Positions 1 through 64,000 of a DNA stretch of 64,000 nucleotides are shown one piece after another. The stretch is taken from IMG/VR virus record IMGVR_UViG_3300003691_000004, positions 1 to 64,000 of that record; one strand, 5' to 3'. Within the stretch, counting starts at the first letter, position 1; each line of letters begins with the position of its first letter. Position numbers and translations under genes: made by a program. The notes below the pieces were generated by a model. It had not been told where the DNA came from. It made no database searches and saw nothing but the letters and a program-made list of their open reading frames with translations. Origin of the DNA: a virus.

Positions 1-60
1 CGCTACTGGTTCAACCGCTACTGGTTCAACCGCCACTGGTTCAACCGCCACTGGTTCAAC
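1..60. repeat. 15-bp tandem repeat, four copies
   Basis: Four perfect or near-perfect copies of a 15-bp unit (CGCYACTGGTTCAAC) lie head to tail. On the minus strand they encode VEPVA repeats in the tail of the DUF6744-like protein. The array may continue beyond the window. In-frame short repeats like this change length easily by slippage. Confidence 0.9.
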
Positions 61-965
61 CGCCGCATCGCGAATTGCTACGACTTCACTTTCTAGCTCT
101 GCGATGCCATCCTGGATTTCATCCATCGCGTCACCTAGCAAAATCTCATAGCTAAGCGCTTGCGACCTCAGCCCCGCCAACGCTTCAATTCGCGCTGAAT
201 AGGCCTTGCCATCCTTCTTACCGTCGCTATCACGCCACGCGGCAAGCTTGATTCTAAACTCGTTCAAGTCTTGTTTCGCCGCATCCTTGTATCCCGATGT
301 CATTCCAGCACGCGCGGCGTCGCAGTCGGGAATAGGTATCATCATCAGCTCTGATTTGGGGTGAACATATTCACGTACTTCATCAAGGCTTTTGAGCAAT
401 AGCTCAACCGATGGCGGCGCGAAGTAAACGCCGCCCGATGGTCTAATCGGGAAGCAACCGAAAACATCCATCGCCTTCTTGAACATCTTACGAACATCGA
501 TGGAACCCAAATAGGCCTTCTCTTTTTGGTAGATGTCGGAAAAGCGCATCGCGTATGAGTGGTAAACATCGCCGCCCTTGAATATGAAGCCGCCCGATGC
601 CTTTTCAAGCTTGACCCAAAATTCATTTTCTAGGGTCAGTTCACTTGTCAACGAATTGCTCATCTCGCGAACAAACGACATTACGACAAACGCATCCGAT
701 TCGATGACTTTACGCATCTCAATCCCATCGACGCCGCCGCCGTGGTTCCAAGAACGACAAGCCGCCGAAAATGCTGTTTTCGTGGTTCGCGGCTTGCCGA
801 CGATGCCTTTAGGCAAAAGGCAATTATCGGCGAAATTCTGCGCCGCCTCGGCATCATAATTCGCGCCCTCTGGAACGGTCCAATAAACAATTGAACCCAA
901 CATCGAAACGCCCGCGACATCCGCGCCTACTACAATCCTATCCTTCAAGTCGTTAGCACTATTCA
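1..965 (-). CDS. DUF6744-like protein, C-terminus cut by window edge
   Basis: The frame is open from ATG at 965 to the left edge (at least 321 codons). It begins MNSANDLKDRIVVGADVAGV and contains a middle region with RKMFKKAMDVFGCFPIRPSG followed by GVYFAPPSVELLL. This '(R/P)xGGVYF' region resembles phage and megaplasmid proteins annotated DUF6744, which are often neighbours of MoxR ATPases and VWA proteins; that link is from memory and needs a search. The visible C-terminal part is a proline/valine/glutamate repeat, VEPVA x4, likely a flexible tail. ATG overlaps the TAG stop of the upstream gene (GATGAATAG), so it is the last visible gene of a leftward operon. Function unknown. Confidence 0.7.
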
Positions 966-1309
966 TCGCCTTTTCCCTTCTCTGAAATTCTAATCAACAT
1001 CTCAATTAAGCTTAAAAGCGCGGCGTCGTCATCGGCGGCGGCCGCTTCATCTATATCCTCAAAAAGCAACCATCCATCATCGCGGCGTCGCGTCACGGTG
1101 AAGCCATGTTCAAACATCGCTATCTGGAACGCATCAAGTGAAACGCCCGCGATGTTGAAATTGAAGTCTTCACCCGCATCGTTGGCGTCGATAGATGTGT
1201 CGCCTAGTCGATCCGTCGCGACTACCATCGCGCGCGGCGCGATCGGTTGAACATCTACGCGTACGCTTCGAACGCCATCGATGTCGGCCGCTAAGTAGAT
1301 CCGTTTCAT
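959..1309 (-). CDS. hypothetical acidic protein, 116 aa
   Basis: A complete leftward gene, ATG at 1309, rich in Asp and Ala. Its start overlaps the end of the preceding 77-aa gene (…EKGKE stop) and its TAG overlaps the start of the DUF6744-like gene, so the three are translationally coupled. AAGGGCAAGGA just before the ATG is a good ribosome binding site. No family is recognised; it looks like a small alpha/beta protein with an acidic helical tail. Codon use is the GAT/ATC/GCG-rich style of the flank and unlike the phage core. Confidence 0.75.
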   Translation of the reverse strand: MKRIYLAADIDGVRSVRVDVQPIAPRAMVVATDRLGDTSIDANDAGEDFNFNIAGVSLDAFQIAMFEHGFTVTRRRDDGWLLFEDIDEAAAADDDAALLSLIEMLIRISEKGKGDE

Positions 1310-1539
1310 TCCTTGCCCTTCTCAATTATTGTTATTTGACCCGGCTTTAATCGCGACGCGCCATCGGGCGCGTCGGTCGTTTTTTGTTCACTAGCAACGT
1401 CGGCATGATACTTAATCGACGCCGTAAAGAAGCCGCCTATGCTCAGACAAGCTTCCCAACATCGCCGCGATGCTGACACGTCACGCGCCGCCTTTTTGAC
1501 TATCGGCATCGCGGCCTTGCCGCTTATTTTTTTGCCCAT
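1306..1539 (-). CDS. hypothetical basic protein, 77 aa
   Basis: Begins MGKKISGKAAMPIVKKAARD; the N-terminus is lysine rich. Its ATG lies inside the last codons of the 425-aa gene (RWAKK stop region) and its stop overlaps the next ATG, which supports a real gene in a compact operon. AAGGGA precedes the ATG at short spacing. No domain recognised. Confidence 0.6.
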   Translation of the reverse strand: MGKKISGKAAMPIVKKAARDVSASRRCWEACLSIGGFFTASIKYHADVASEQKTTDAPDGASRLKPGQITIIEKGKE

Positions 1540-2801
1540 CTTAATCCCTTCATCTGTATCCGGTTGAAATACCCAACATCGAACAACCCATCCATCTCGA
1601 TGGCGTCGGCGTGATGTTGAGCTTCAAAATCCATCGCGCGGTCGATGTTGCTGAACTGATGCGTAAAGCTTCCGACGTGCGTTTTCGTTGTTAAGCAAAA
1701 TTCGCGGCGATCGGCGATGCCGATGATGAAGTGAAGCCGCGCGCCCGTCGCGCGGCGGACGTACCCCGCGTCGCCATCCAAAGACCATCCTTTGGTACTG
1801 TATAAGCATCGCCCCTCGGCGGCCGCTTCATCGGCGTCATCAGCTTCGAGCGACATCTCAACATCGCGGGCGATGTCAATATCGATGCCGATCGGATGTG
1901 CGGCGTCGCGGGCGGCCGTCGCTAGTGTTGGCAACATCGTACGCGCCGCGATATAGGCGACATCGGCATCGCGGGCGGCCGCCGCGCGCGCGGCGTTTTC
2001 TGCGATCATAGTGCTAACATCAAAGCCGCGATGCTTGGAGACTGAAACGGTTACAGCGTCTCGGGCGGCGGTCACATCGGGCGCGTCGCGGGAGTCGCCA
2101 ACGGCGGCCGCGTACTGCCCATAGGCGGCGTCATCGGCGCGATGTGTTGTGATATCACCTGCGATGGGCGCGGCGGCTTTGATGGCGGCGTCGGCGGCCT
2201 TGGCGGCCGCAACATCGCCCGCGTCGGCTATTCCATCATCGTTGATGGCGACGTACCCGATTGAGGTTAAAAACGACCGCGCGGTTTTTTTGGCGGCGGC
2301 GCGGCGGGCGTCAAAATCAGTATCGACCGCGACATCGAGCGCGGCCTGATGGTTTTCCCGGTGACCACGAAAACAGTTTTCGCCGATCGCCTCAACATGA
2401 TCCTCGGCCATCATCTCGGCGGCGCAAGCGGCGCGATATTCGATATGGTCATTGTCGGCGATGGCCTCAACATGATCCTCGGCCATCATCTCGGCGGCGG
2501 CCTCGGCGGCGTGACGCGCCTCCACTTCGCCGCGCGTTTTTTCAAACGCCGCATCAAGCTTAAGAACTAGCAACGCCGCGCAAGCCTTGCGTGTTGTGCA
2601 ATAATCGATGGTTTCGACGCCTTCACTGGACAACACGATGCGATCGACATCGCCCGTCTTTATTGCTGGGATATCGCGATAGTAAACACGCGCGGTCAAT
2701 TGCCATTGACCGCCATCGACCTTGATGAAGTCGGCTTTAGTTCTCGGGTCAAAATAATGGCCCGCCTCAACCTTCACGAATTCAATTTCTAGGCTAGTCA
2801 T
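1524..2801 (-). CDS. alanine/aspartate-rich protein, 425 aa, first visible operon gene left of the border
   Basis: I place the start at ATG 2801 (MTSLEIEFVKVEAGHYFDPR), preceded by the purine-rich GAGAAGAGAAAACG; an upstream in-frame start at 2924 lacks such a site. The N-terminal ~110 residues look folded and contain a CTTRKACAAL segment. The middle ~200 residues are low-complexity Ala/Asp with a duplicated block AEMMAEDHVEAI. The last ~80 residues (from about YSTKGWSLDGD) again look globular and end FNRIQMKGLRWAKK. The central part may be an extended or coiled linker. No family recognised. It heads the leftward operon 425 aa - 77 aa - 116 aa - DUF6744-like. Confidence 0.7.
   Translation of the reverse strand: MTSLEIEFVKVEAGHYFDPRTKADFIKVDGGQWQLTARVYYRDIPAIKTGDVDRIVLSSEGVETIDYCTTRKACAALLVLKLDAAFEKTRGEVEARHAAEAAAEMMAEDHVEAIADNDHIEYRAACAAEMMAEDHVEAIGENCFRGHRENHQAALDVAVDTDFDARRAAAKKTARSFLTSIGYVAINDDGIADAGDVAAAKAADAAIKAAAPIAGDITTHRADDAAYGQYAAAVGDSRDAPDVTAARDAVTVSVSKHRGFDVSTMIAENAARAAAARDADVAYIAARTMLPTLATAARDAAHPIGIDIDIARDVEMSLEADDADEAAAEGRCLYSTKGWSLDGDAGYVRRATGARLHFIIGIADRREFCLTTKTHVGSFTHQFSNIDRAMDFEAQHHADAIEMDGLFDVGYFNRIQMKGLRWAKK
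2389..2498. repeat. perfect 35-bp direct repeat inside the 425-aa gene
   Basis: Positions 2389-2423 and 2464-2498 are identical over 35 bp and 75 bp apart, encoding the duplicated AEMMAEDHVEAI block. Identity at the DNA level, including third positions, suggests a recent duplication or gene conversion. Confidence 0.9.
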
Positions 2802-3678
2802 CGTTTTCTCTTCTCTTCTCAATCCCTCAAAAACGCCCATCGGCGGGCGGCGAAACAAACAAACAACAAAAACTACAGCCCTTCTTGTACCGTTGTCGGT
2901 AGCGATAGCAATCAATGATAACATCTCATCTCATACGCGGTCGACGCCGAGAAGCCGCGATGCGGCCTAAGGTGAGATGTCAATTAAGCTTGAAGCGGCG
3001 CGGATTTTTTATTTATTTATTTTTATTTTTATCAATTGAGCGATCAAAAAGACCCCGTCGCGGCGGCGCGGATGTCAATCGAGACGATGATGGCGGCAAG
3101 GCGGCGATAGGGAGAAGCGGCGATGCGGCTTCTTGGGTGATATCTCAATTCATTGCACTTAGGACGAAAAACGCACATCGACGCGCCGCCTATACAGTGA
3201 TAAGGGGGAAGGCTGAAACGCCTAGAATCGGCTTCTGTTGGTGTTGTGGGCGATCTAAGGGATACTACTTAGACGGGATTAAGGGTTATTACTTAGCGGC
3301 GATGCGGCGTCGCGAGATGGGCGCGACTGCTCGATGTTTTTAGTGTTATAAGTTTCGCTTATGCCTTGCCGCGATGCCATAACGTCAGCTTATAGCTTCA
3401 TAATAGGGCAAGCTTAGTATTCTCGGCGGAGATGTCGCATTGCCGCGATGCGGCGGCTCGGCGTCGATTGAGATGTCGATTTACTGAAAAGCCGATTGTC
3501 ACAGTATTGTCATCGCGGCGTTGTTGATTGAGATGTTGATTGTGGCACGGTATTTGAGAACTAGGTTAAAAATTAACCGCGTAATATCTGCATGGTAGGA
3601 AATCGACCGCGTAAAAAAGATGTACGGCTAGAAATTGGCCGCTTCGCAGATTTGGGAATTCATACGGTGGCCAGAATT
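2802..3678. other. repeat-rich intergenic region of left flank
   Basis: No convincing gene. It contains many copies of a TCAATTAAG / TCGATTGAG-type box, often followed by ATGT and a second box (for example 2970-2985, 3058-3085, 3468-3485, 3525-3545), plus short AT tracts and a CAAACAAACAA run near 2860. The same boxes and runs occur in the right flank (61.5-62.25 and 63.63 kb). Near the border it degenerates into copies of GACCGCGT and TGGCCGC motifs related to the 30-bp repeats outside the right border. Candidate promoter/operator region for the leftward operon. Confidence 0.5.
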
Positions 3679-3702
3679 TGGCCGCCTTGTTTTGAGGCGT
3701 AC
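3679..3702 (+). repeat. left copy of 24-bp border inverted repeat
   Basis: TGGCCGCCTTG followed by TTTTGAGGCGTAC. The reverse complement recurs at 61311-61334 with only two mismatches, in the middle (TG versus CA). Both copies are adjacent to the sequence change between flank and phage core, and both have GTACGAAAAGTG within a few bases. Confidence 0.85.
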
Positions 3703-3714
3703 GAAAAGTGGACA

Positions 3715-3770
3715 TAGGTAGATCTACCTACGTAGAATCACGTAGGCAAAACTACGTAGGTAGAACCCCC
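3715..3770 (+). repeat. left border array of 14-bp units (TAsGTAG type)
   Basis: Four consecutive 14-bp units: TAGGTAGATCTACC, TACGTAGAATCACG, TAGGCAAAACTACG, TAGGTAGAACCCCC. The first is part of a 16-bp perfect palindrome (3715-3730) and CTACGTAG (3728-3735) is also palindromic. A matching four-unit 14-bp array lies at the other border (61242-61297). Looks like an ordered protein-binding array (iteron-like or end-binding). Confidence 0.8.
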
Positions 3771-27264: not shown

Positions 27265-27281
27265 ACAAGAAGTATATTGCA

Positions 27282-27320
27282 GGGCAAATGGTCTTGAGAA
27301 CGCCATTTGCCCTTTTTTTT
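27282..27320 (+). terminator. strong intrinsic terminator
   Basis: Perfect 10-bp stem GGGCAAATGG (27282-27291) / CCATTTGCCC (27303-27312), 11-nt loop, T8. Confidence 0.95.
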
Positions 27321-27350
27321 CTATGTGACGAGGCATAGGAAGAAAAAAAG

Positions 27351-27803
27351 ATGTCAAAAATCGTGTCAATGGTGTTGGTATTTATCTGTGGGTGCTACGG
27401 CACCTCTGTAACTTTAGATGTAAATCGATCATTCCCCAGCGAATTCTCTGGTTCAGGTAGCACCTCGGACCCATACAACCCGGATCTTGGATATATTAAT
27501 TCTTACGGGATATCTATAACTACATGGATCGACAAGCCGAGCGTTAGGGTAGAATTACCAAAAGTCGAATTAGACATCCCCCACGAAGTCCTAGACATCC
27601 CCTACCGGATCGTAGATAGTCTAAAAGCTAGGCCAGTCGTAGCTAAGCAGACTGAGAAGTCGGAAAAGCCAGGCTACGTTGGAGCACTCGATTCTCTAGG
27701 TTCTTGGGACACAGGTAAAATAATAGCCCTGACCCTGCCGATCTTAGCCATTTCGTTCGGGATGTACCTGCTTTACAGACATAGAAAGTCAAACGATGCC
27801 TGA
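27351..27803 (+). CDS. lipobox protein with C-terminal membrane helix, unimolecular spanin candidate
   Basis: 150 aa. Start MSKIVSMVLVFICGC: a short signal with lipobox ICGC (Cys15 as lipidated residue; Cys13 also possible). The middle (residues ~20-120) is beta and Pro-rich. The C-terminus has one membrane helix (about 123-142, KIIALTLPILAISFGMYLLY) and basic RHRKSNDA. An N-terminal lipoprotein anchor plus a C-terminal inner-membrane helix in about 130-150 aa is the architecture of u-spanins such as T1 gp11, which fuse inner and outer membranes during lysis. It is not near the holin-like genes, so the assignment stays tentative. Begins a new operon after the terminator. Confidence 0.45.
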   Translation: MSKIVSMVLVFICGCYGTSVTLDVNRSFPSEFSGSGSTSDPYNPDLGYINSYGISITTWIDKPSVRVELPKVELDIPHEVLDIPYRIVDSLKARPVVAKQTEKSEKPGYVGALDSLGSWDTGKIIALTLPILAISFGMYLLYRHRKSNDA

Positions 27804-48037: not shown

Positions 48038-48963
48038 TGGCATTTAACGCGCCGAGTTTAAACCAAGTGGCAGCAGCAGACACTGATTACCGCACCAAAA
48101 TAAACAACAACACCACCTCAATTGAGGATGCGTTCAACTCAATTGAGACCACATTTGCGGCATCGCAGGATGGCACGGCGGAGCAGATCTCAACGGATCA
48201 CTACAGGCGCACAGCTGGTAGCGATCCGATCGGAGGGGTGATCGGTACGCTGTCGTGCGTGTTCGACGGATCGGTCGCTGATGTCGTGACGTTAAAGGCC
48301 TCTAACTTGGACTTGTCTAGCAACGCCGTCATGAGTGGGACGCGCAGGTCGAAGATTGGTGACATATCAATTGATTTGACAGCACTAGGCCTCGCAAACG
48401 TCAACGACCAGACGATATTCGTAGGGCTCAACACACTATCCTCAGCGAGCTTCGACGGCGTGGCCGCGTCGCTAGCCTCAGGTATGGCCCTTGCCCTATA
48501 TGAGGTCGTGGTGGACGTTGCAGCTGGTGTCTACACTGTGACGAAGGTGAAGCGCGTCCCGAGGACATTGATCTGGGACAACACGGTGCAGCAGGAGATG
48601 CTAGAGCGCCCACAGACGTTGACCTATTCGATCTCAGCTATGGCGGCGTCAGAAGACTTCCTCTTCCCGTTGCCGTTTGACTGCTCGATTAAAAAAATGT
48701 CGTGGTTTAATAAAACGGCCTACGTAGCGACGCTATCGGCGATAGAGATAAAAGATTCCGCTGGCGCAACGAGCTACCTGACAATCACGCAGGCAAACCC
48801 AGTAGCAAACACGGTATACTCGGCGAACGTGTTGGCGATCTGGGACGGAGTTGTTTTCGCGGAGGGCACCGTGCTAGAAATCAGTAGAAGCGCAGAAGGC
48901 GTATCCTCGGACGCGATCTTCACAATTGAACTCTTACCCGCTTACAATATGCCTACTCAATAG
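48037..48963 (+). CDS. fibre-like protein, 308 aa
   Basis: N-terminal helical segment (NQVAAADTDYRTKINNNTTS), then beta-rich, Ala/Ser-rich C-half (CSIKKMSWFNKTAYVATLSA). Position at the end of the tail genes fits a receptor-binding or baseplate protein. No recognised domain. Confidence 0.5.
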   Translation: MAFNAPSLNQVAAADTDYRTKINNNTTSIEDAFNSIETTFAASQDGTAEQISTDHYRRTAGSDPIGGVIGTLSCVFDGSVADVVTLKASNLDLSSNAVMSGTRRSKIGDISIDLTALGLANVNDQTIFVGLNTLSSASFDGVAASLASGMALALYEVVVDVAAGVYTVTKVKRVPRTLIWDNTVQQEMLERPQTLTYSISAMAASEDFLFPLPFDCSIKKMSWFNKTAYVATLSAIEIKDSAGATSYLTITQANPVANTVYSANVLAIWDGVVFAEGTVLEISRSAEGVSSDAIFTIELLPAYNMPTQ

Positions 48964-48980
48964 TAGGAGAATCGTAATCC

Positions 48981-49658
48981 ATGGACAGTAACGAGGAGAA
49001 TTTTGAGTTGGCCAACAATTCTAACAAAGGCAGCTCGGAGCGCATCGCCGCCTTGGAGGTCTCCCATGAGATGCTCACAAACGACGTCCGAAGCCTCGCC
49101 AAGTCCGTCAGGGACGTAGCTAGACAAAACCAAGAGTCCATGAACGCCCTCAGCAAGGAGCTATCACACTCCATCGAGGCCGTGACAGATAGGATATCAA
49201 GCACAACGAAAACACCGTGGGCGAACCTTCTCGCAGGTGTGGGAATAATCCTCGTTGTCGCTGGAGCTTTCTGTTCTGGTTACTTGCGCGACCAAGGTCG
49301 TATTGAACGTACCGTTTACGACATACAAAAAAGCTTGGGCGATCACCTGAGCAGTAAGGGTCATTTCAGGACTGAGGCAAACGAGAAAGCTATCCGTGAA
49401 TTAGATGTCGTTCTACAGCGGGAAATGCGACTTTTAGACGCACGGGCAGACACAGAGATCAAAGCGATCAGTGAACGCCTACACAGGGAGATGGAGTTGC
49501 AGGGCAGGGCCTTGAAAATCCAAGCAGATCTTTCGCAAGCGCAGATCTCTAAAAATCTGAGGTGGCAAGAAGAGCACGACCAACGCGTGGTCGGTTTGAA
49601 CGCCTCACAAAACGAGCGCCTCAAAGCACTTGAGCGCGAAACTTACATTAAGGACTAA
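48981..49658 (+). CDS. membrane-anchored coiled-coil protein, 225 aa, i-spanin-like
   Basis: Soluble helical N-terminus with coiled coil (residues 1-70: AALEVSHEMLTNDVRSLAKS), one membrane segment (about 76-95, WANLLAGVGIILVVAGAFCSG), then a ~125-residue coiled coil (IRELDVVLQREMRLLDARAD … QAQISKNLRWQEEHDQ). The second half resembles periplasmic coiled-coil spanin parts, but the long N-terminal soluble region is unusual for an i-spanin. AAGGACTAATC and TAAGGACTAATCATGG couple it to the following holin-like gene. Confidence 0.45.
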   Translation: MDSNEENFELANNSNKGSSERIAALEVSHEMLTNDVRSLAKSVRDVARQNQESMNALSKELSHSIEAVTDRISSTTKTPWANLLAGVGIILVVAGAFCSGYLRDQGRIERTVYDIQKSLGDHLSSKGHFRTEANEKAIRELDVVLQREMRLLDARADTEIKAISERLHREMELQGRALKIQADLSQAQISKNLRWQEEHDQRVVGLNASQNERLKALERETYIKD

Positions 49659-49660
49659 TC

Positions 49661-49858
49661 ATGGCAAGTTGGAAAAGTACAGCACTTGGAATCATCGGAG
49701 GCATTGGAATCTTGGCTACTCAATTAACGGCACTACTGGACTCTGATCCAGCAACGGTATTCGACATCTCCGTCGCGATCGGTGCCCTTGGAGTATTCGG
49801 CCTCGGTGTTGTGGCGCGAGACAATGGCGTTTCTTCGGAAGACGTTGGCGCTAAGTAA
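49661..49858 (+). CDS. small holin-like membrane protein, 65 aa
   Basis: Two hydrophobic segments: residues ~8-25 (LGIIGGIGILATQLTALL) and ~36-52 (ISVAIGALGVFGLGVVA), short loop, small polar C-terminus. This two-segment, ~65-residue form matches small phage holins (class II) as judged by topology only. TAATG overlap with the next gene. Confidence 0.5.
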   Translation: MASWKSTALGIIGGIGILATQLTALLDSDPATVFDISVAIGALGVFGLGVVARDNGVSSEDVGAK

Positions 49859-50061
49859 TGGGTTGGATCGTTGAGGTTTTAGCAGGTCTTGGCGCTTTCC
49901 TTCGTGAGTTACTGCCAGCACTCAGAGAAAGACGAGGCGTAGACTATGCAGGTGACCAGAAAACTTTTGATGTGCTCAATGATGACATTGATGCTGCTAT
50001 CGAGCGGCTGCGGGTTGATTCAGATGTTCGATCCGACGACGATAGTGAAAGCACCGGATAG
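49858..50061 (+). CDS. hypothetical protein, 67 aa, lysis cluster
   Basis: Amphipathic or membrane-associated N-terminus (GWIVEVLAGLGAFLRELLPA) and an acidic helical C-terminus. The nested lipoprotein gene starts at 49946 within it in another frame, so the arrangement resembles the i-spanin/o-spanin (Rz/Rz1) layout, though this protein lacks a long coiled coil. Confidence 0.5.
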   Translation: MGWIVEVLAGLGAFLRELLPALRERRGVDYAGDQKTFDVLNDDIDAAIERLRVDSDVRSDDDSESTG

Positions 50062-50209
50062 TCCGATGCTTGTGATTCAAGTAGGATGGACAAAGGCCAA
50101 AGTCGCCGTGTTTGATCCCAAAACGAATGCACTCACTACATACGGGTGGATTGAACTGGAGTCGATCAAAGGCCTTACATTGCACAAGTACGATTGGAAC
50201 AAGCGCTAG
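49946..50209 (+). CDS. lipoprotein, o-spanin-like, partly nested
   Basis: 87 aa. Signal and lipobox: MQVTRKLLMCSMMTLMLLSS then GCGLIQ (Cys22 lipidated). The remaining 65 residues are beta-rich (SPMLVIQVGWTKAKVAVFDP). The start lies out of frame in the 49858 gene, a 116-nt overlap. Lipoproteins embedded in a small upstream gene next to a holin-like gene recall Rz1-type outer-membrane spanins; they are usually shorter and Pro-rich, so this is tentative. Confidence 0.5.
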   Translation: MQVTRKLLMCSMMTLMLLSSGCGLIQMFDPTTIVKAPDSPMLVIQVGWTKAKVAVFDPKTNALTTYGWIELESIKGLTLHKYDWNKR

Positions 50210-50221
50210 AGGGCTCCTCTT

Positions 50222-50370
50222 GTGCGAATCGGTTTTTCGATTTCGGAAAATGCTGTAGCGGTTCGCACTAGACCGGGAAAGCGAGGTGTGAAATCTGAGT
50301 CAAGTCTAACTACCGTAGACTATGCACACCTAGCCGATCTGGCTTGAGCCCCCAGATCGGTTATTTCTTT
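50222..50370 (+). ncRNA. structured RNA ending in intrinsic terminator
   Basis: Four helices in order: GTGCGAA (50222-50228)/TTCGCAC (50262-50268); AGGTGTG (50284-50290)/CACACCT (50325-50331) enclosing AGTCTA (50303-50308)/TAGACT (50316-50321); terminator CCGATCTGG (50334-50342)/CCAGATCGG (50352-50360) followed by TTATTTCTTTT. No open frame. Nothing in the region matches a known RNA family that I recognise. A candidate small RNA or leader made after the lysis genes. Confidence 0.55.
50334..50370 (+). terminator. intrinsic terminator after lysis cluster
   Basis: Perfect 9-bp stem with 9-nt loop and T-rich tail (see structured RNA entry). Confidence 0.9.
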
Positions 50371-50400
50371 TGACGGTTGCGCTCCGATTGAAAATGATCG
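50369..50400 (+). promoter_or_regulatory. possible promoter for the replication operon
   Basis: TTGACG (50370-50375) with an AT-rich AAAATGAT about 16-17 nt downstream, between two terminators. The -10 is poor; low confidence. Confidence 0.3.
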
Positions 50401-50453
50401 TGTAAGCTACAAAAAGATGAGTCAACTCCTCTTCCCCTGACTCTACACTTGCG

Positions 50454-50487
50454 CCCGAACCCTTGCCCCAGGGTTCGGGTTCTTTAC
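50454..50487 (+). terminator. terminator/attenuator upstream of helicase gene
   Basis: CCCGAACCCT (50454-50463) pairs with AGGGTTCGGG (50470-50479), 6-nt loop, followed by TTCTTTACTC. It lies 14 nt before the RBS AGGAGA of the helicase gene, so a short leader of about 90 nt from the nearby promoter would end here unless readthrough occurs. Confidence 0.8.
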
Positions 50488-50500
50488 TCTCAGGAGACAG

Positions 50501-51979
50501 ATGCACCAAGAACCATTCAAGGTGAAAACCACACCTTACTCTCACCAAGTCGACAGCTACTACCGGGTGAAGTCACTACTGAAACAACGTGGTGGAATGG
50601 CGATACTCTCTGAGCAGGGCACAGGGAAGAGTAAAGTCTTAATCGACTACTTAGATTCACTGGCAGACGAAACAGGATACCTAGGGATGCATCTTATCGT
50701 TGCCCCTAACGTAGTAGTCGAAAACTGGCGCGACGAAATCGCGATTCACTCTAGGTACTACGGCGAGCACGTTCATATACTTAGGCAAGTTCGCAAGAAG
50801 AGAATAGAGCTAGCAACTAGCGGCAAGCCTGGCATTTACGTTATCAACTACGAAGGTATCAGGACGCTTAAGTATAAAGGTGGCGGCAAAAAGGTCATCG
50901 CAAATCACCACTTAGCTAAGCAGCCATGGGACACAGTGGCCTGTGACGAGATCACTCGAATAAATAGTAGATCGTCGCAACAGAGTCGCGGTATGCACGA
51001 CTTCACAAAATGGTGCCCTAAGGCCAAACGCATAGGTATGACAGGGACGCCGATCACAGACGAGCCTATGAATATCTTCTCAATATTCAGGTTTATTGAC
51101 CCAACTGTATTCGGCACAGACTACTACGCGTTCGAGCACAGGTACGCCGAAACGCAAAAGGAGATTATCTATATCGGCGGCAAGCCTCGCGAAGTGAAAA
51201 ACATTTGCGGGTACAAGAACGAGGACGAGCTTTCAAAGAAGATGTACGAAAGCTCAGTTCGTTGGATGAAAAAAGACTGCCTAGACCTACCTGAGCGCAC
51301 ATGGCAGACGCGGCTCATCCCATGGGATAAAGACCAGAAGCGTATTTACGAGGACATGCAAAAAGACATGTTATCCGAGATAGGTAACGATCAGTGGATC
51401 AGTAGCGCGAATGCCATAGCTAACTTAATCAAGTTACGACAGATCACCCAAGGTTGGGTTTACACAGACCGCGAAGGCTCGTACAAGATGGTCTGCAAGA
51501 ATCCGCCGAAGCTGAAAGCCCTCAAGGAAGCAATAGAGGACTCAGCGGGACAGGTGCTAGTCTTCTTCACGTTCAAAGCGGACTTGAAGATCATAAAAGA
51601 GTTCTTCGACAAAAATAAAATCACCTACGCTGTCATCGCTGGCGAGGTCTCTATGGAGGGTCGCAGCGATGCAGCGAAGCAGATACAAAACGGCTCAGTT
51701 CGCGTTGGCCTATGTCAAACGAAAGTCACTCAGTTCGGCTTAACTTTGACGGCGGCAAGCACGGCGATTTACTACTCTAACGGCTTTGGCATGGAAGAGC
51801 GGTTGCAGTCGCAGGATAGAATTCACAGGATCGGACAGAAGTGCAAGGTCACCTACATCGACTTGTGCATGGAAGATTCGATCGACGTGTCTATCTGTAA
51901 GATGCACCGAAAGAAGGTCAAGATAGCCGAACGAATTACTATGACCCAGTTTAGACAACTGGCGAAGGGGTTTGCATGA
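50501..51979 (+). CDS. SNF2-family helicase/ATPase
   Basis: 492 aa. Motif I ILSEQGTGKSKVLIDY (Walker A at about 40-45), DEXD-like VACDEITRINSRSSQQSRG, motif III RIGMTGTPITDEPMNIF, and the C-domain signature LTAASTAIYYSNGFGMEERL QSQDRIHRIGQKCKVTYIDL. This is the SNF2/DEAD-like superfamily 2 architecture common in phages for DNA translocation or repair. AGGAGA precedes ATG. It is first in the replication operon. Confidence 0.88.
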   Translation: MHQEPFKVKTTPYSHQVDSYYRVKSLLKQRGGMAILSEQGTGKSKVLIDYLDSLADETGYLGMHLIVAPNVVVENWRDEIAIHSRYYGEHVHILRQVRKKRIELATSGKPGIYVINYEGIRTLKYKGGGKKVIANHHLAKQPWDTVACDEITRINSRSSQQSRGMHDFTKWCPKAKRIGMTGTPITDEPMNIFSIFRFIDPTVFGTDYYAFEHRYAETQKEIIYIGGKPREVKNICGYKNEDELSKKMYESSVRWMKKDCLDLPERTWQTRLIPWDKDQKRIYEDMQKDMLSEIGNDQWISSANAIANLIKLRQITQGWVYTDREGSYKMVCKNPPKLKALKEAIEDSAGQVLVFFTFKADLKIIKEFFDKNKITYAVIAGEVSMEGRSDAAKQIQNGSVRVGLCQTKVTQFGLTLTAASTAIYYSNGFGMEERLQSQDRIHRIGQKCKVTYIDLCMEDSIDVSICKMHRKKVKIAERITMTQFRQLAKGFA

Positions 51980-61241: not shown

Positions 61242-61297
61242 TACGTAGTTTTACGTACGTAGTTTTACGTACGTAGAAATACCTACGTAGTTCTACG
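61242..61297 (+). repeat. right border array of 14-bp units (TACGTAG type)
   Basis: Four consecutive units: TACGTAGTTTTACG, TACGTAGTTTTACG, TACGTAGAAATACC, TACGTAGTTCTACG, then TAGTACG. The counterpart array at 3715-3770 has the same unit length and core. Palindromic TACGTA cores suggest dimeric protein binding on one DNA face (14 bp is not an integral helix turn, so faces rotate). Confidence 0.85.
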
Positions 61298-61310
61298 TAG
61301 TACGAAAAGT

Positions 61311-61334
61311 GTACGCCTCAAAATGAGGCGGCCA
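61311..61334 (-). repeat. right copy of 24-bp border inverted repeat
   Basis: GTACGCCTCAAAATGAGGCG then GCCA; reverse complement of 3679-3702 with two mismatches. It contains its own dyad GCCTCAAAATGAGGC. Confidence 0.85.
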
Positions 61335-61404
61335 GATTTTGACCGCGTCAAAACGAGGCGGGCGTTTTTTGACCGCGTCAAAATAAGGCGGGCGTTTTTT
61401 GACC
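61325..61404 (+). repeat. 30-bp direct repeats outside right border
   Basis: Units at 61325, 61355 and (partial) 61385: GAGGCGG(C/G)C then (A)GATTTT or GTTTTTT, then GACCGCGTCAAAAY. The first unit overlaps the border inverted repeat. Relatives of GACCGCGT and TGGCCGC are scattered at 3.57-3.69 kb in reverse order. Confidence 0.8.
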
Positions 61405-61647
61405 GTCCACTTTCTGGCCATGCAAAAATTGCATGGTTAAAAAATAGCCGATTCTCATAATTGGGATTTTTTTACGTCGGCAAATTGTCAATGAACAAGT
61501 TTTTTTTGAGATTGTCAAAATCAATTGACATCTCAACCGCCGCCGCCGCTTAATCGACTACTCAATTAAGTCACAACCGCGCGCCGCCGCTATACTTGCG
61601 ACATCTGGAGAGTACCATAATCGGTATACGCACGCAAGCGCTTAAGC
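61405..61647. other. repeat-rich intergenic region of right flank
   Basis: No gene. TTGAGATTGTCAAAATCAAT then TGACATCTCAACCGCC forms an imperfect dyad around 61508-61537. The 29-bp intergenic repeat is at 61542-61570. A palindromic GCGCGCCGCCGC tract follows. Confidence 0.5.
61542..61570 (-). repeat. 29-bp intergenic repeat, copy 1
   Basis: Reverse strand reads CTTAATTGAGTAGTCGATT then AAGCGGCGGC. Matches 63634-63662 (forward strand) with one difference (A/G). Two ATTRAG half-sites 12 bp apart suggest an operator or promoter element. Confidence 0.8.
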
Positions 61648-61679
61648 AAAAAAAAACGCCCGCCCTTGCAAGGCGGGCG
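61648..61679 (-). terminator. terminator for the 66-aa gene
   Basis: CGCCCGCC (61657-61664)/GGCGGGCG (61672-61679) with A9 on the plus strand, i.e. U-tract in leftward transcripts. Self-complementary CTTGCAAG loop. Confidence 0.8.
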
Positions 61680-61699
61680 CGTCGCGGGCGGCAAGCCGC

Positions 61700-61900
61700 C
61701 TATTCGCCCGCCTTGCCGCCATCATCGGTATCAACAGCGGCGGCGGGCGTGACCGCCTTGCCGCGCCGCTTGCCGCCTTGCAGCACATCGGCGGCAAGCC
61801 GGATGACGATGTCGCATCCGTCGGCGCGAACCTCGACCGCGCCGTCGCGTTTCATAGTCCGCATCATCTCGGCGTTTAGTTCAATTTCTGCACGTCGCAT
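61700..61900 (-). CDS. hypothetical small protein, 66 aa, right flank
   Basis: ATG 61900 with AGGATGA before it. MRRAEIELNAEMMRTMKRDG then AVEVRADGCDIVIRLAADVL: a basic helix and a short beta pair, then an Ala/Lys/Asp tail. Complete with its own terminator. Not recognised; composition is that of the flank. Confidence 0.55.
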   Translation of the reverse strand: MRRAEIELNAEMMRTMKRDGAVEVRADGCDIVIRLAADVLQGGKRRGKAVTPAAAVDTDDGGKAGE

Positions 61901-62203
61901 CTAATTCATCCTATCGCAAGAGAAGCCGCCCGCGTCGCGCCCCTGAATAGGGCAAAAACGCCGCATCGCGGCGTCGCTATGGTATCCATCGAATATCGGG
62001 CGGCAAGGCGGCGGCGCGGTTGAGGCGGCTTCTTTTTTGTTTGTTAAAACACAAACAAACAAACACGCCCGATGCTGTTGACGCGTGCAGTTCATTTTTT
62101 GGCGGCGTCGCGGCGGCGCGGCTTGTTTGTCAATATGTAAACAAACATCGCGATGAAAGTATCGACCATCGACTCGGGCCTAGGCCGATCGGCCTAAGAT
62201 GAC
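61901..62203. other. intergenic region with palindromes and TTTG repeats
   Basis: No gene. TTTGTTTG/CAAACAAAC inverted pairs at about 62037-62065 and 62122-62146; perfect 16-bp palindrome TAGGCCGATCGGCCTA at 62181-62196. A CAAACAAAC run also occurs at 2857 in the left flank. Confidence 0.55.
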
Positions 62204-62239
62204 AAAAAGCCGCGCCGCTCAATTAAGGGCGGCGCGGCT
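62204..62239 (-). terminator. strong terminator after VWA gene
   Basis: AGCCGCGCCGC (62208-62218)/GCGGCGCGGCT (62229-62239), 11-bp perfect stem, loop TCAATTAAGG containing the flank box, A5 on the plus strand (U-tract leftward). Confidence 0.9.
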
Positions 62240-62260
62240 CTGATTTTGTTTGTTTGTCGA

Positions 62261-63622
62261 TTAAGTTTTCGGCCGCCCTCGCAATGCCGCGAACAACGCC
62301 GACATCTCAATATCGCCGATGGCCTCGGCGTTGTCTATTTGCAAGCCGCCGCTGTTTTCGGCGATGGATCGCAAGCCGGGAGCATCGGCATCTGGTGATA
62401 TGGCGAATATGAAAAGCCGGGTCCCTATCTTTTCAAACGCCGCCGATGCGCGCTCAACCGCGACATCATCTATCTCATGATCCCAACCATCGGCCGCATC
62501 GCCGTTATATCTCAATCGATCGTCACCATCGGTTATGAGGACGATATCAGCATCGTCGGCGATGCCGTTAACGGCCGCCGATAGTGCTGGTTTGAATTTA
62601 GTTCCGCCGCGCGCGCGCGTTGACAATATATCGTCGATCGCGCCAACGCTAGCGATGCCGCCTTTGATGTCGACGATGTGATGTTCCATTACGGTGTTAT
62701 TGTAGGGGATTAATTTAAAGTCGCGCCCGCCGTCGCGGCATATTCGCAACAATGCAAGCGCAAATGCCGATGCGAAGTCATCGCGCGTCGCGCCATCCAT
62801 CGCGGGTTCTAACATCGACGATGACTTGTCAATTAAGACCACCATCGGGCCTGCGCCTTGATGCTTGTTCTCTGCTATCTTAAATTGCATCAAGGATCGA
62901 TCTAAGAATTTACGATCGAACATCGAATCGGGCATCGCGAATTGAGATGCCAGGACGCGCGACGGCGTCGCGCCTAGTTCAACGCCGACAATCTGCGACG
63001 CGGTAAGCGTTGCGCATCGTTTCTTACCCATCGCATCGACAATCTTAAAGCGTCCGATTAGATCGGCGATGGTTTTGAATTGCCCATCGCGCATCATGTT
63101 CGCAAGCTGCAACCGCGCCGCGATAGATGCGCCATCGGTCGTATCGTCATCGCTATCGCCCGCGAAGCCGCCGCCCATCGTTTGTTCGATGAAGTCGTTT
63201 AACGTGTCTGATGCATCCGTCGCGGCGTCGGCGGCGCGCGCGGTCGATTGTCGCGCGGTCGACTCTTTCATCTCATCGTCGGCGGCGTCGACCGCCATCA
63301 TCGCATCTGTTAGCGCATCCGTCGCCAACACGGATTCTACAGCATCACCCATAGTAGATTCTCGCATTGCCTCAAAGGCGGGCGTTGCCATAACAGATGC
63401 AAGCGCATCGCTATGCTCAAGGGTCGCATCGATGTTTTCGTCGATGTCGTTTTTGTACAGCGCAAAAAACGCATCGCGCGTCGCGTCGACGCCCGCCTTG
63501 TTTGTCGCTACTGTTAGCGCGGTTGACATCGTCTTGAATCCATCATAAAGGTCGCGCGCGGTATCTGTGATGTTAAGCGCACTAGCGCCGCCGTATGAAT
63601 CAGAGCCAAAGTGACCCATCAT
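62261..63622 (-). CDS. VWA-domain protein (ViaA/CoxE-type)
   Basis: 453 aa. Helical, Ala/Asp-rich N-terminal 240 residues with FKTIADLIGRFKIVDAMGKK (the LxxLxGR lead-in to ViaA-like VWA proteins), then the VWA domain: MIDAS DxSxS in MVVLIDKSSSMLEPAM (about 265-269), second threonine GGTKFKPALSA, and aspartate DIVLITDGDD. Such proteins work with MoxR-family AAA+ ATPases as a chaperone pair for metal-cofactor or complex insertion. No MoxR gene is in the window; it may lie just right of it. RBS GGAAACA before ATG is fair. Same composition as the left-flank genes. Confidence 0.8.
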   Translation of the reverse strand: MMGHFGSDSYGGASALNITDTARDLYDGFKTMSTALTVATNKAGVDATRDAFFALYKNDIDENIDATLEHSDALASVMATPAFEAMRESTMGDAVESVLATDALTDAMMAVDAADDEMKESTARQSTARAADAATDASDTLNDFIEQTMGGGFAGDSDDDTTDGASIAARLQLANMMRDGQFKTIADLIGRFKIVDAMGKKRCATLTASQIVGVELGATPSRVLASQFAMPDSMFDRKFLDRSLMQFKIAENKHQGAGPMVVLIDKSSSMLEPAMDGATRDDFASAFALALLRICRDGGRDFKLIPYNNTVMEHHIVDIKGGIASVGAIDDILSTRARGGTKFKPALSAAVNGIADDADIVLITDGDDRLRYNGDAADGWDHEIDDVAVERASAAFEKIGTRLFIFAISPDADAPGLRSIAENSGGLQIDNAEAIGDIEMSALFAALRGRPKT

Positions 63623-63633
63623 TGTTTCCTATT

Positions 63634-63662
63634 CTTAATTGAGTAGTCGATTGAGCGGCGGC
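63634..63662 (+). repeat. 29-bp intergenic repeat, copy 2
   Basis: CTTAATTGAGTAGTCGATT then GAGCGGCGGC. Lies 12 bp upstream of the VWA gene's start and downstream of the 63691 gene. One difference from the 61542 copy. Confidence 0.8.
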
Positions 63663-63690
63663 AAGGGAGCCGCCGCCCGCGATGTTTGCT

Positions 63691-64000
63691 TTAGCTTGCT
63701 ATGCTGATGCCGCCCGTCAACGACGCGGCTAAGCGCCGCTTGAGCGGCTTAATCGAGGCGACCAAGTCGCCAACATCGCCCGCGATGCCGCCGCTGATAT
63801 TAAACTCGGGACCCTTGACCATCATCTCGATGTCGCGCGCCCGCGCCAACAATTCGCCCGCCTTCCCAGAGTCGCCCCCATCGGCCGCCTTGAACAATCC
63901 AAAATCCTCAATCAAAGCATCACACATCGAGCGCAAGCGCTCAATTTGAGGGATACAGAAGGCGTTGACGATGCGCTTGATCCCTCGCAATTGTTGCGGC
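63691..64000 (-). CDS. hypothetical protein, N-terminus beyond window
   Basis: The frame is open to the right edge, so the true start is outside; TTG 63990 is only a fallback. Visible part: IVNAFCIPQIERLRSMCDAL … LLARARDIEMMVKGPEFNIS, helical then basic PLKRRLAASLTGGISIAS. Precedes the VWA gene in the same direction with a 68-bp gap that carries the 29-bp repeat. Unknown. Confidence 0.5.
   Translation of the reverse strand, partial: PQQLRGIKRIVNAFCIPQIERLRSMCDALIEDFGLFKAADGGDSGKAGELLARARDIEMMVKGPEFNISGGIAGDVGDLVASIKPLKRRLAASLTGGISIAS

What the first reader, a model, noticed from the sequence alone, without database searches (positions are those of the whole stretch)
50222..50370. Structured 150-nt RNA with terminator after the lysis genes
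Three perfect 6-7-bp helices (one nested) are followed by a 9-bp terminator with no open frame. It may be a phage small RNA or leader, and a second terminator (50454-50487) lies before the helicase gene.
Basis: partly seen in the sequence, partly recalled or inferred. Interest (0 to 1): 0.6.

Follow-up and report, generated by a model that had tools for sequence, protein, structure and literature searches.

The report
Phage gene-block boundary with two terminators
The hairpins are really there, but they look like an ordinary transcription stop region between two gene blocks of an environmental phage, and nothing found shows a separate small RNA.

Summary
The hairpins at 50222-50370 exist as described, and a second terminator lies at 50453-50480. 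Folding is moderately better than shuffled sequence (z -2.6 to -2.9), but this is not rare here: about 11% of random windows of this phage reach the same z, and the best-placed window ranks 243 of 5110. The claim 'no open frame' is wrong: a 45-codon frame runs from 50210 to the terminator loop, in frame with the preceding lipoprotein gene; its codon score is ambiguous. No Rfam family matches. No homologue of sequence or fold was found in published phages, plasmids, or about 2.5 Mb of related viral loci. All relatives found are distant (best 59% in capsid, 48% in an ATPase), so covariation could not be tested. Best reading: the 3' end of the late transcript, closed by an intrinsic terminator with two upstream hairpins. 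A second terminator directly before the helicase ribosome-binding site probably limits read-through into the replication genes. A regulatory RNA is possible but unsupported. Ordinary; low interest.

The parts
49946..50209 (+). 87-aa lipoprotein-like ORF (signal peptide with LSSGC lipobox by eye), last gene of the late block; overlaps 49858-50061 in another frame, as Rz/Rz1 spanin pairs do
   Evidence: no family; reading by eye
50222..50268 (+). Hairpin H1: 10-bp stem GTGCGAATCG/CGGTTCGCAC with an inner 8-bp stem
50210..50347 (+). Open frame of 45 codons in frame with the preceding gene; GTG start at 50222 (41 aa); stop in the terminator loop; coding status undecided
50284..50331 (+). Hairpin H2: 7-bp stem AGGTGTG/CACACCT with nested 6-bp stem AGTCTA/TAGACT
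50331..50370 (+). Intrinsic terminator T1: stem 50331-50363, loop 9, tail TTTCTTTT
50370..50398 (+). Weak sigma-70-like site TTGACG-17-AATGAT (9 of 12) between the two terminators
   Evidence: 1 found against 0.2 expected in the gap
50453..50487 (+). Intrinsic terminator T2: 11-bp stem, loop 6, tail TTCTTTACT; ends about 5-10 nt before the helicase ribosome-binding site AGGAG (about 50492-50496)
50501..51979 (+). SNF2-type helicase, first gene of the replication block
   Evidence: Pfam SNF2-rel_dom 1.1e-20, phrog_62 6.9e-95

Best explanation
This is the boundary between two transcription units of the phage. The late block (tail and probable lysis genes) ends at 50209; its mRNA carries a short structured 3' tail (H1, H2) and stops at intrinsic terminator T1. 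A second terminator, T2, lies just before the helicase's ribosome-binding site with no room for an ordinary promoter after it, so the replication block is probably transcribed from a start upstream of T2 (perhaps the weak site at 50370-50398) and part of that transcription is stopped at T2. H1 and H2 most likely act only as 3'-end structure (stability, keeping the terminator arm free of competing pairs). Shown: the sequence elements and their order. Inferred: that they terminate, where transcription starts, and the role of H1 and H2.
For: Two canonical stem-plus-T-run sites on the coding strand in a 291-nt gap between gene blocks. Only a few comparably strong + strand terminators occur in the main + strand gene region (6112, 6860, 27281), also in gaps. 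The fold of the whole gap is better than all 200 shuffles (z -3.8), and this includes both terminators. The reverse strand folds less well (z -1.1). No homologue of H1/H2.
Against: No transcript data. H1 plus H2 alone still beat 199 of 200 shuffles, more than a bare terminator needs. Helicase genes of distant relatives are mostly not preceded by terminators (2 of about 50 within 200 nt upstream), so the arrangement is not a conserved property of this module.
Confidence: 0.62

Rival explanations
1. A discrete phage small RNA, either processed from the 3' end of the late mRNA or made from its own promoter, that acts on phage or host mRNAs.
For: Stable hairpins ending in a terminator are the usual form of 3'-UTR-derived sRNAs; z -2.9 without the terminator. 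Phage-derived sRNAs are established as a class (review PMC12197685).
Against: No promoter-like site before it in 48900-50370 other than one 1.3 kb upstream; no Rfam match; no homologue; 11% of random windows fold as well.
Confidence: 0.13
2. A cis-acting control of read-through: H1/H2 or the leader 50400-50487 decides, through an antiterminator fold, a leader peptide (ATG 50418, MSQLLFP) or an RNA that modifies polymerase, whether transcription passes T1 and T2 into the helicase operon.
For: T2 sits directly upstream of the helicase ribosome-binding site. TGAGTCA occurs at 50296 and 50418, and TGACTC (about 50438) can pair with either, giving alternative folds.
Against: TGAGTCAA copies are not above chance in the window. 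The only competing pair seen for the T1 arm is about 5 bp. H1 and H2 are 15 nt apart and not just after a promoter, unlike putRNA (PMC9378689). No homologue.
Confidence: 0.15
3. The stretch is protein coding: a 41-aa ORF from GTG 50222, or an extension of the lipoprotein by reading through its TAG stop; the hairpins are incidental.
For: Open for 45 codons in the lipoprotein's frame up to the T1 loop; AGAGG before GTG 50222; codon score at the 7th percentile of real gene segments and above 96% of shifted frames.
Against: An open frame this long is expected about 11% of the time; score close to neutral; no protein match in phages, Pfam or PHROGs; H1 would cover the start codon.
Confidence: 0.1

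Closest known systems
Tandem intrinsic terminators at operon boundaries of tailed phages
   Same: G+C-rich stem plus T-run, on the coding strand, in the gap between late and replication genes
   Different: Two extra hairpins upstream of the first terminator; activity untested
3'-UTR-derived bacterial and phage sRNAs (review PMC12197685)
   Same: Hairpins ending in an intrinsic terminator after a coding gene
   Different: No transcript, target, Hfq motif or conservation shown
HK022 putRNA (PMC9378689)
   Same: Two hairpins upstream of terminators
   Different: putRNA is about 70 nt with abutting stems, downstream of early promoters; here the hairpins span 110 nt, are 15 nt apart and follow the late genes

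Membership tests
Intrinsic (Rho-independent) terminator | G+C-rich stem of 7+ bp followed directly by a T-rich tract | tested here: met
   T1 50331-50370, T2 50453-50487
Intrinsic (Rho-independent) terminator | RNA 3' ends map to the T tract | not testable with these tools
   no transcript data
Structured noncoding RNA under selection | Compensatory base changes in homologues | not tested
   no homologue found, so no alignment to test
Known Rfam RNA family | Covariance-model match at the gathering score | tested here: not met
Independent phage sRNA gene | Own promoter just upstream | tested here: not met
   no sigma-70-like site upstream of 50222 within 1.2 kb; other promoter types not covered
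HK022 putRNA | About 70 nt, two stem-loops meeting at one bifurcation base | tested here: not met
   H1 and H2 span 50222-50331 with 15 nt between them against the description in PMC9378689
HK022 putRNA | Suppresses termination downstream without a protein factor | not testable with these tools
   needs in vitro transcription

The most novel reading that the evidence does not exclude
The 291-nt gap is an RNA switch between late and replication transcription: H1/H2 and the leader before T2 act together as a cis-acting read-through control of the helicase operon, of a type not described before.
Probability: 0.06. Interest if true: 0.55.

Novelty: new member of a known kind. Interest (0 to 1): 0.13.

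Why it matters
As found, it helps only to mark a transcription-unit border in an otherwise isolated environmental phage. If a discrete RNA or read-through control were shown, it would be a new phage regulatory RNA in a lineage for which no close published relative was found.

Tried and rejected
Relatives by helicase, coiled-coil membrane protein, tail protein and primase (single-protein scans): none. By major capsid protein: 14 loci, best 59%. By alignments of the ATPase and helicase: 80 loci each, all distant. One bacterial MAG contig by capsid. The only long relative, G007, has unrelated genes and no similar RNA before its helicase. A pattern for the nested helix in IMG/VR gave two hits in what looks like the same unrelated stretch, taken as chance. 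A covariance model built from the single sequence found only the window itself in about 2.5 Mb. tRNA or tmRNA: none. Weak Rfam hits (human lncRNA, worm snoRNA, far below their thresholds, minus strand) are chance. Antiterminator fold against T1: only about 5 bp.

Full report
Setting. The window is most of a 65,044-base virus record. Genes run mostly on the + strand from the portal (8563) through head, tail and small membrane-protein genes to 50209, then, after a 291-nt gap, a replication block: SNF2-type helicase 50501-51979, a Pam3 gp34-like protein, primase and ATPase. The finding lies in the gap.

Observation. The second terminator is also present. The statement that there is no open frame is wrong: the frame of the preceding lipoprotein continues open after its TAG for 45 codons and ends inside the loop of the first terminator, with a GTG and a possible ribosome-binding site near 50222. 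The codon score of that frame lies between real genes and shifted frames, so it is undecided; no protein relative was found.

Is the structure unusual? Against shuffled copies of itself the 166-nt stretch has z -2.6, the part without the terminator z -2.9 and the entire gap z -3.8. But this genome folds better than its shuffles in general: of 110 random windows of 160 nt, 11% had z at or below -2.6 and the lowest were near -4.6 (the same script gave -2.7 and -4.1 for two placings of the target). In a scan of 5110 windows on both strands the best-placed window here ranked 243. Three perfect helices of 7 bp or more in 161 nt are found in 1.6% of windows. The structure is therefore real and mildly unusual, and part of the signal is the terminators themselves.

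Relatives. No nucleotide relative was found in 50,697 phage records or 72,556 plasmids. In IMG/VR the capsid protein has relatives at up to 59% identity, the ATPase up to 48%, the helicase up to 38%. The tools warn that records very near the window may be left out. The 65-kb relative G007 has the same order of helicase, gp34-like protein, primase and ATPase but different genes in front of the helicase. A covariance model from the single sequence and its fold found no second copy; with one sequence this is a weak negative. Covariation therefore remains untested, not refuted. Upstream of some 50 distant helicase genes, only two had a terminator-like site within 200 nt, so the tandem terminators are particular to this genome's layout.

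Mechanism. The most economical reading is a border between transcription units: late mRNA ends at T1 after two hairpins; T2 lies so near the helicase start that helicase transcription must begin upstream of it, which makes T2 either a back-up stop for late transcription or a partial stop in the helicase leader. A weak promoter-like site lies between T1 and T2. An RNA-based control of read-through or a processed small RNA is possible; neither has positive evidence here. Comparison with HK022 putRNA (PMC9378689) fails on size, spacing and position. Phage-derived small RNAs are a known class (PMC12197685).

Verdict. Correct sighting of hairpins and terminators, over-read as a small RNA; ordinary unless transcripts or close relatives show otherwise.

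Noticed in passing
L024 and L197-L216 (record G007, IMGVR_UViG_3300023210_000001): The 65-kb relative carries 22 near-identical copies, all on one strand, of a promoter-plus-leader cassette: TTGACC, about 17-18 nt, TATACT, then TGTTTTTATGAGAGGGAGGAAAGGTTCTTCCCTC (a hairpin GAGGGA...TCCCTC), then A-rich sequence and a start codon, before different small genes; in 20 aligned copies the hairpin is nearly invariant. It was not found in seven other related records, most of them fragments.
   Followed up: partly
window 3669-3766 and 61248-61344: Imperfect inverted repeats (72% over 98 nt, E 1e-11) with arrays of TACGTAG palindromes and nearby 30-nt repeats (61314-61403). The 61226 window is the strongest fold of the whole window.
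   Followed up: partly
window 1-3600 and 61400-64000 (L194 to record end): Record start and end share the 15-nt tandem repeat CGCTACTGGTTCAAC, so the record is probably circular, and a G+C-richer block of about 7 kb with a vWA-like protein (62261-63622, by eye) and a probable MoxR-like ATPase past the window end is bounded by the inverted repeats above.
   Followed up: partly
window 27281-27313: Strong 12-bp terminator with eight T inside the late block (z -3.5 for 27265-27424), a cleaner terminator than either one in the finding.
   Followed up: no
window 50418-50441: Seven-codon frame ATG AGT CAA CTC CTC TTC CCC TGA overlapping a GAGTCA/TGACTC pair just before T2; possible leader peptide, possibly chance.
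   Followed up: no
L111 (JAJCYF010000062.1): The only bacterial-genome contig with a related capsid gene (52%) is a 31-kb contig of an Actinomycetes MAG; it may be a co-binned virus or hint at an actinobacterial host.
   Followed up: no
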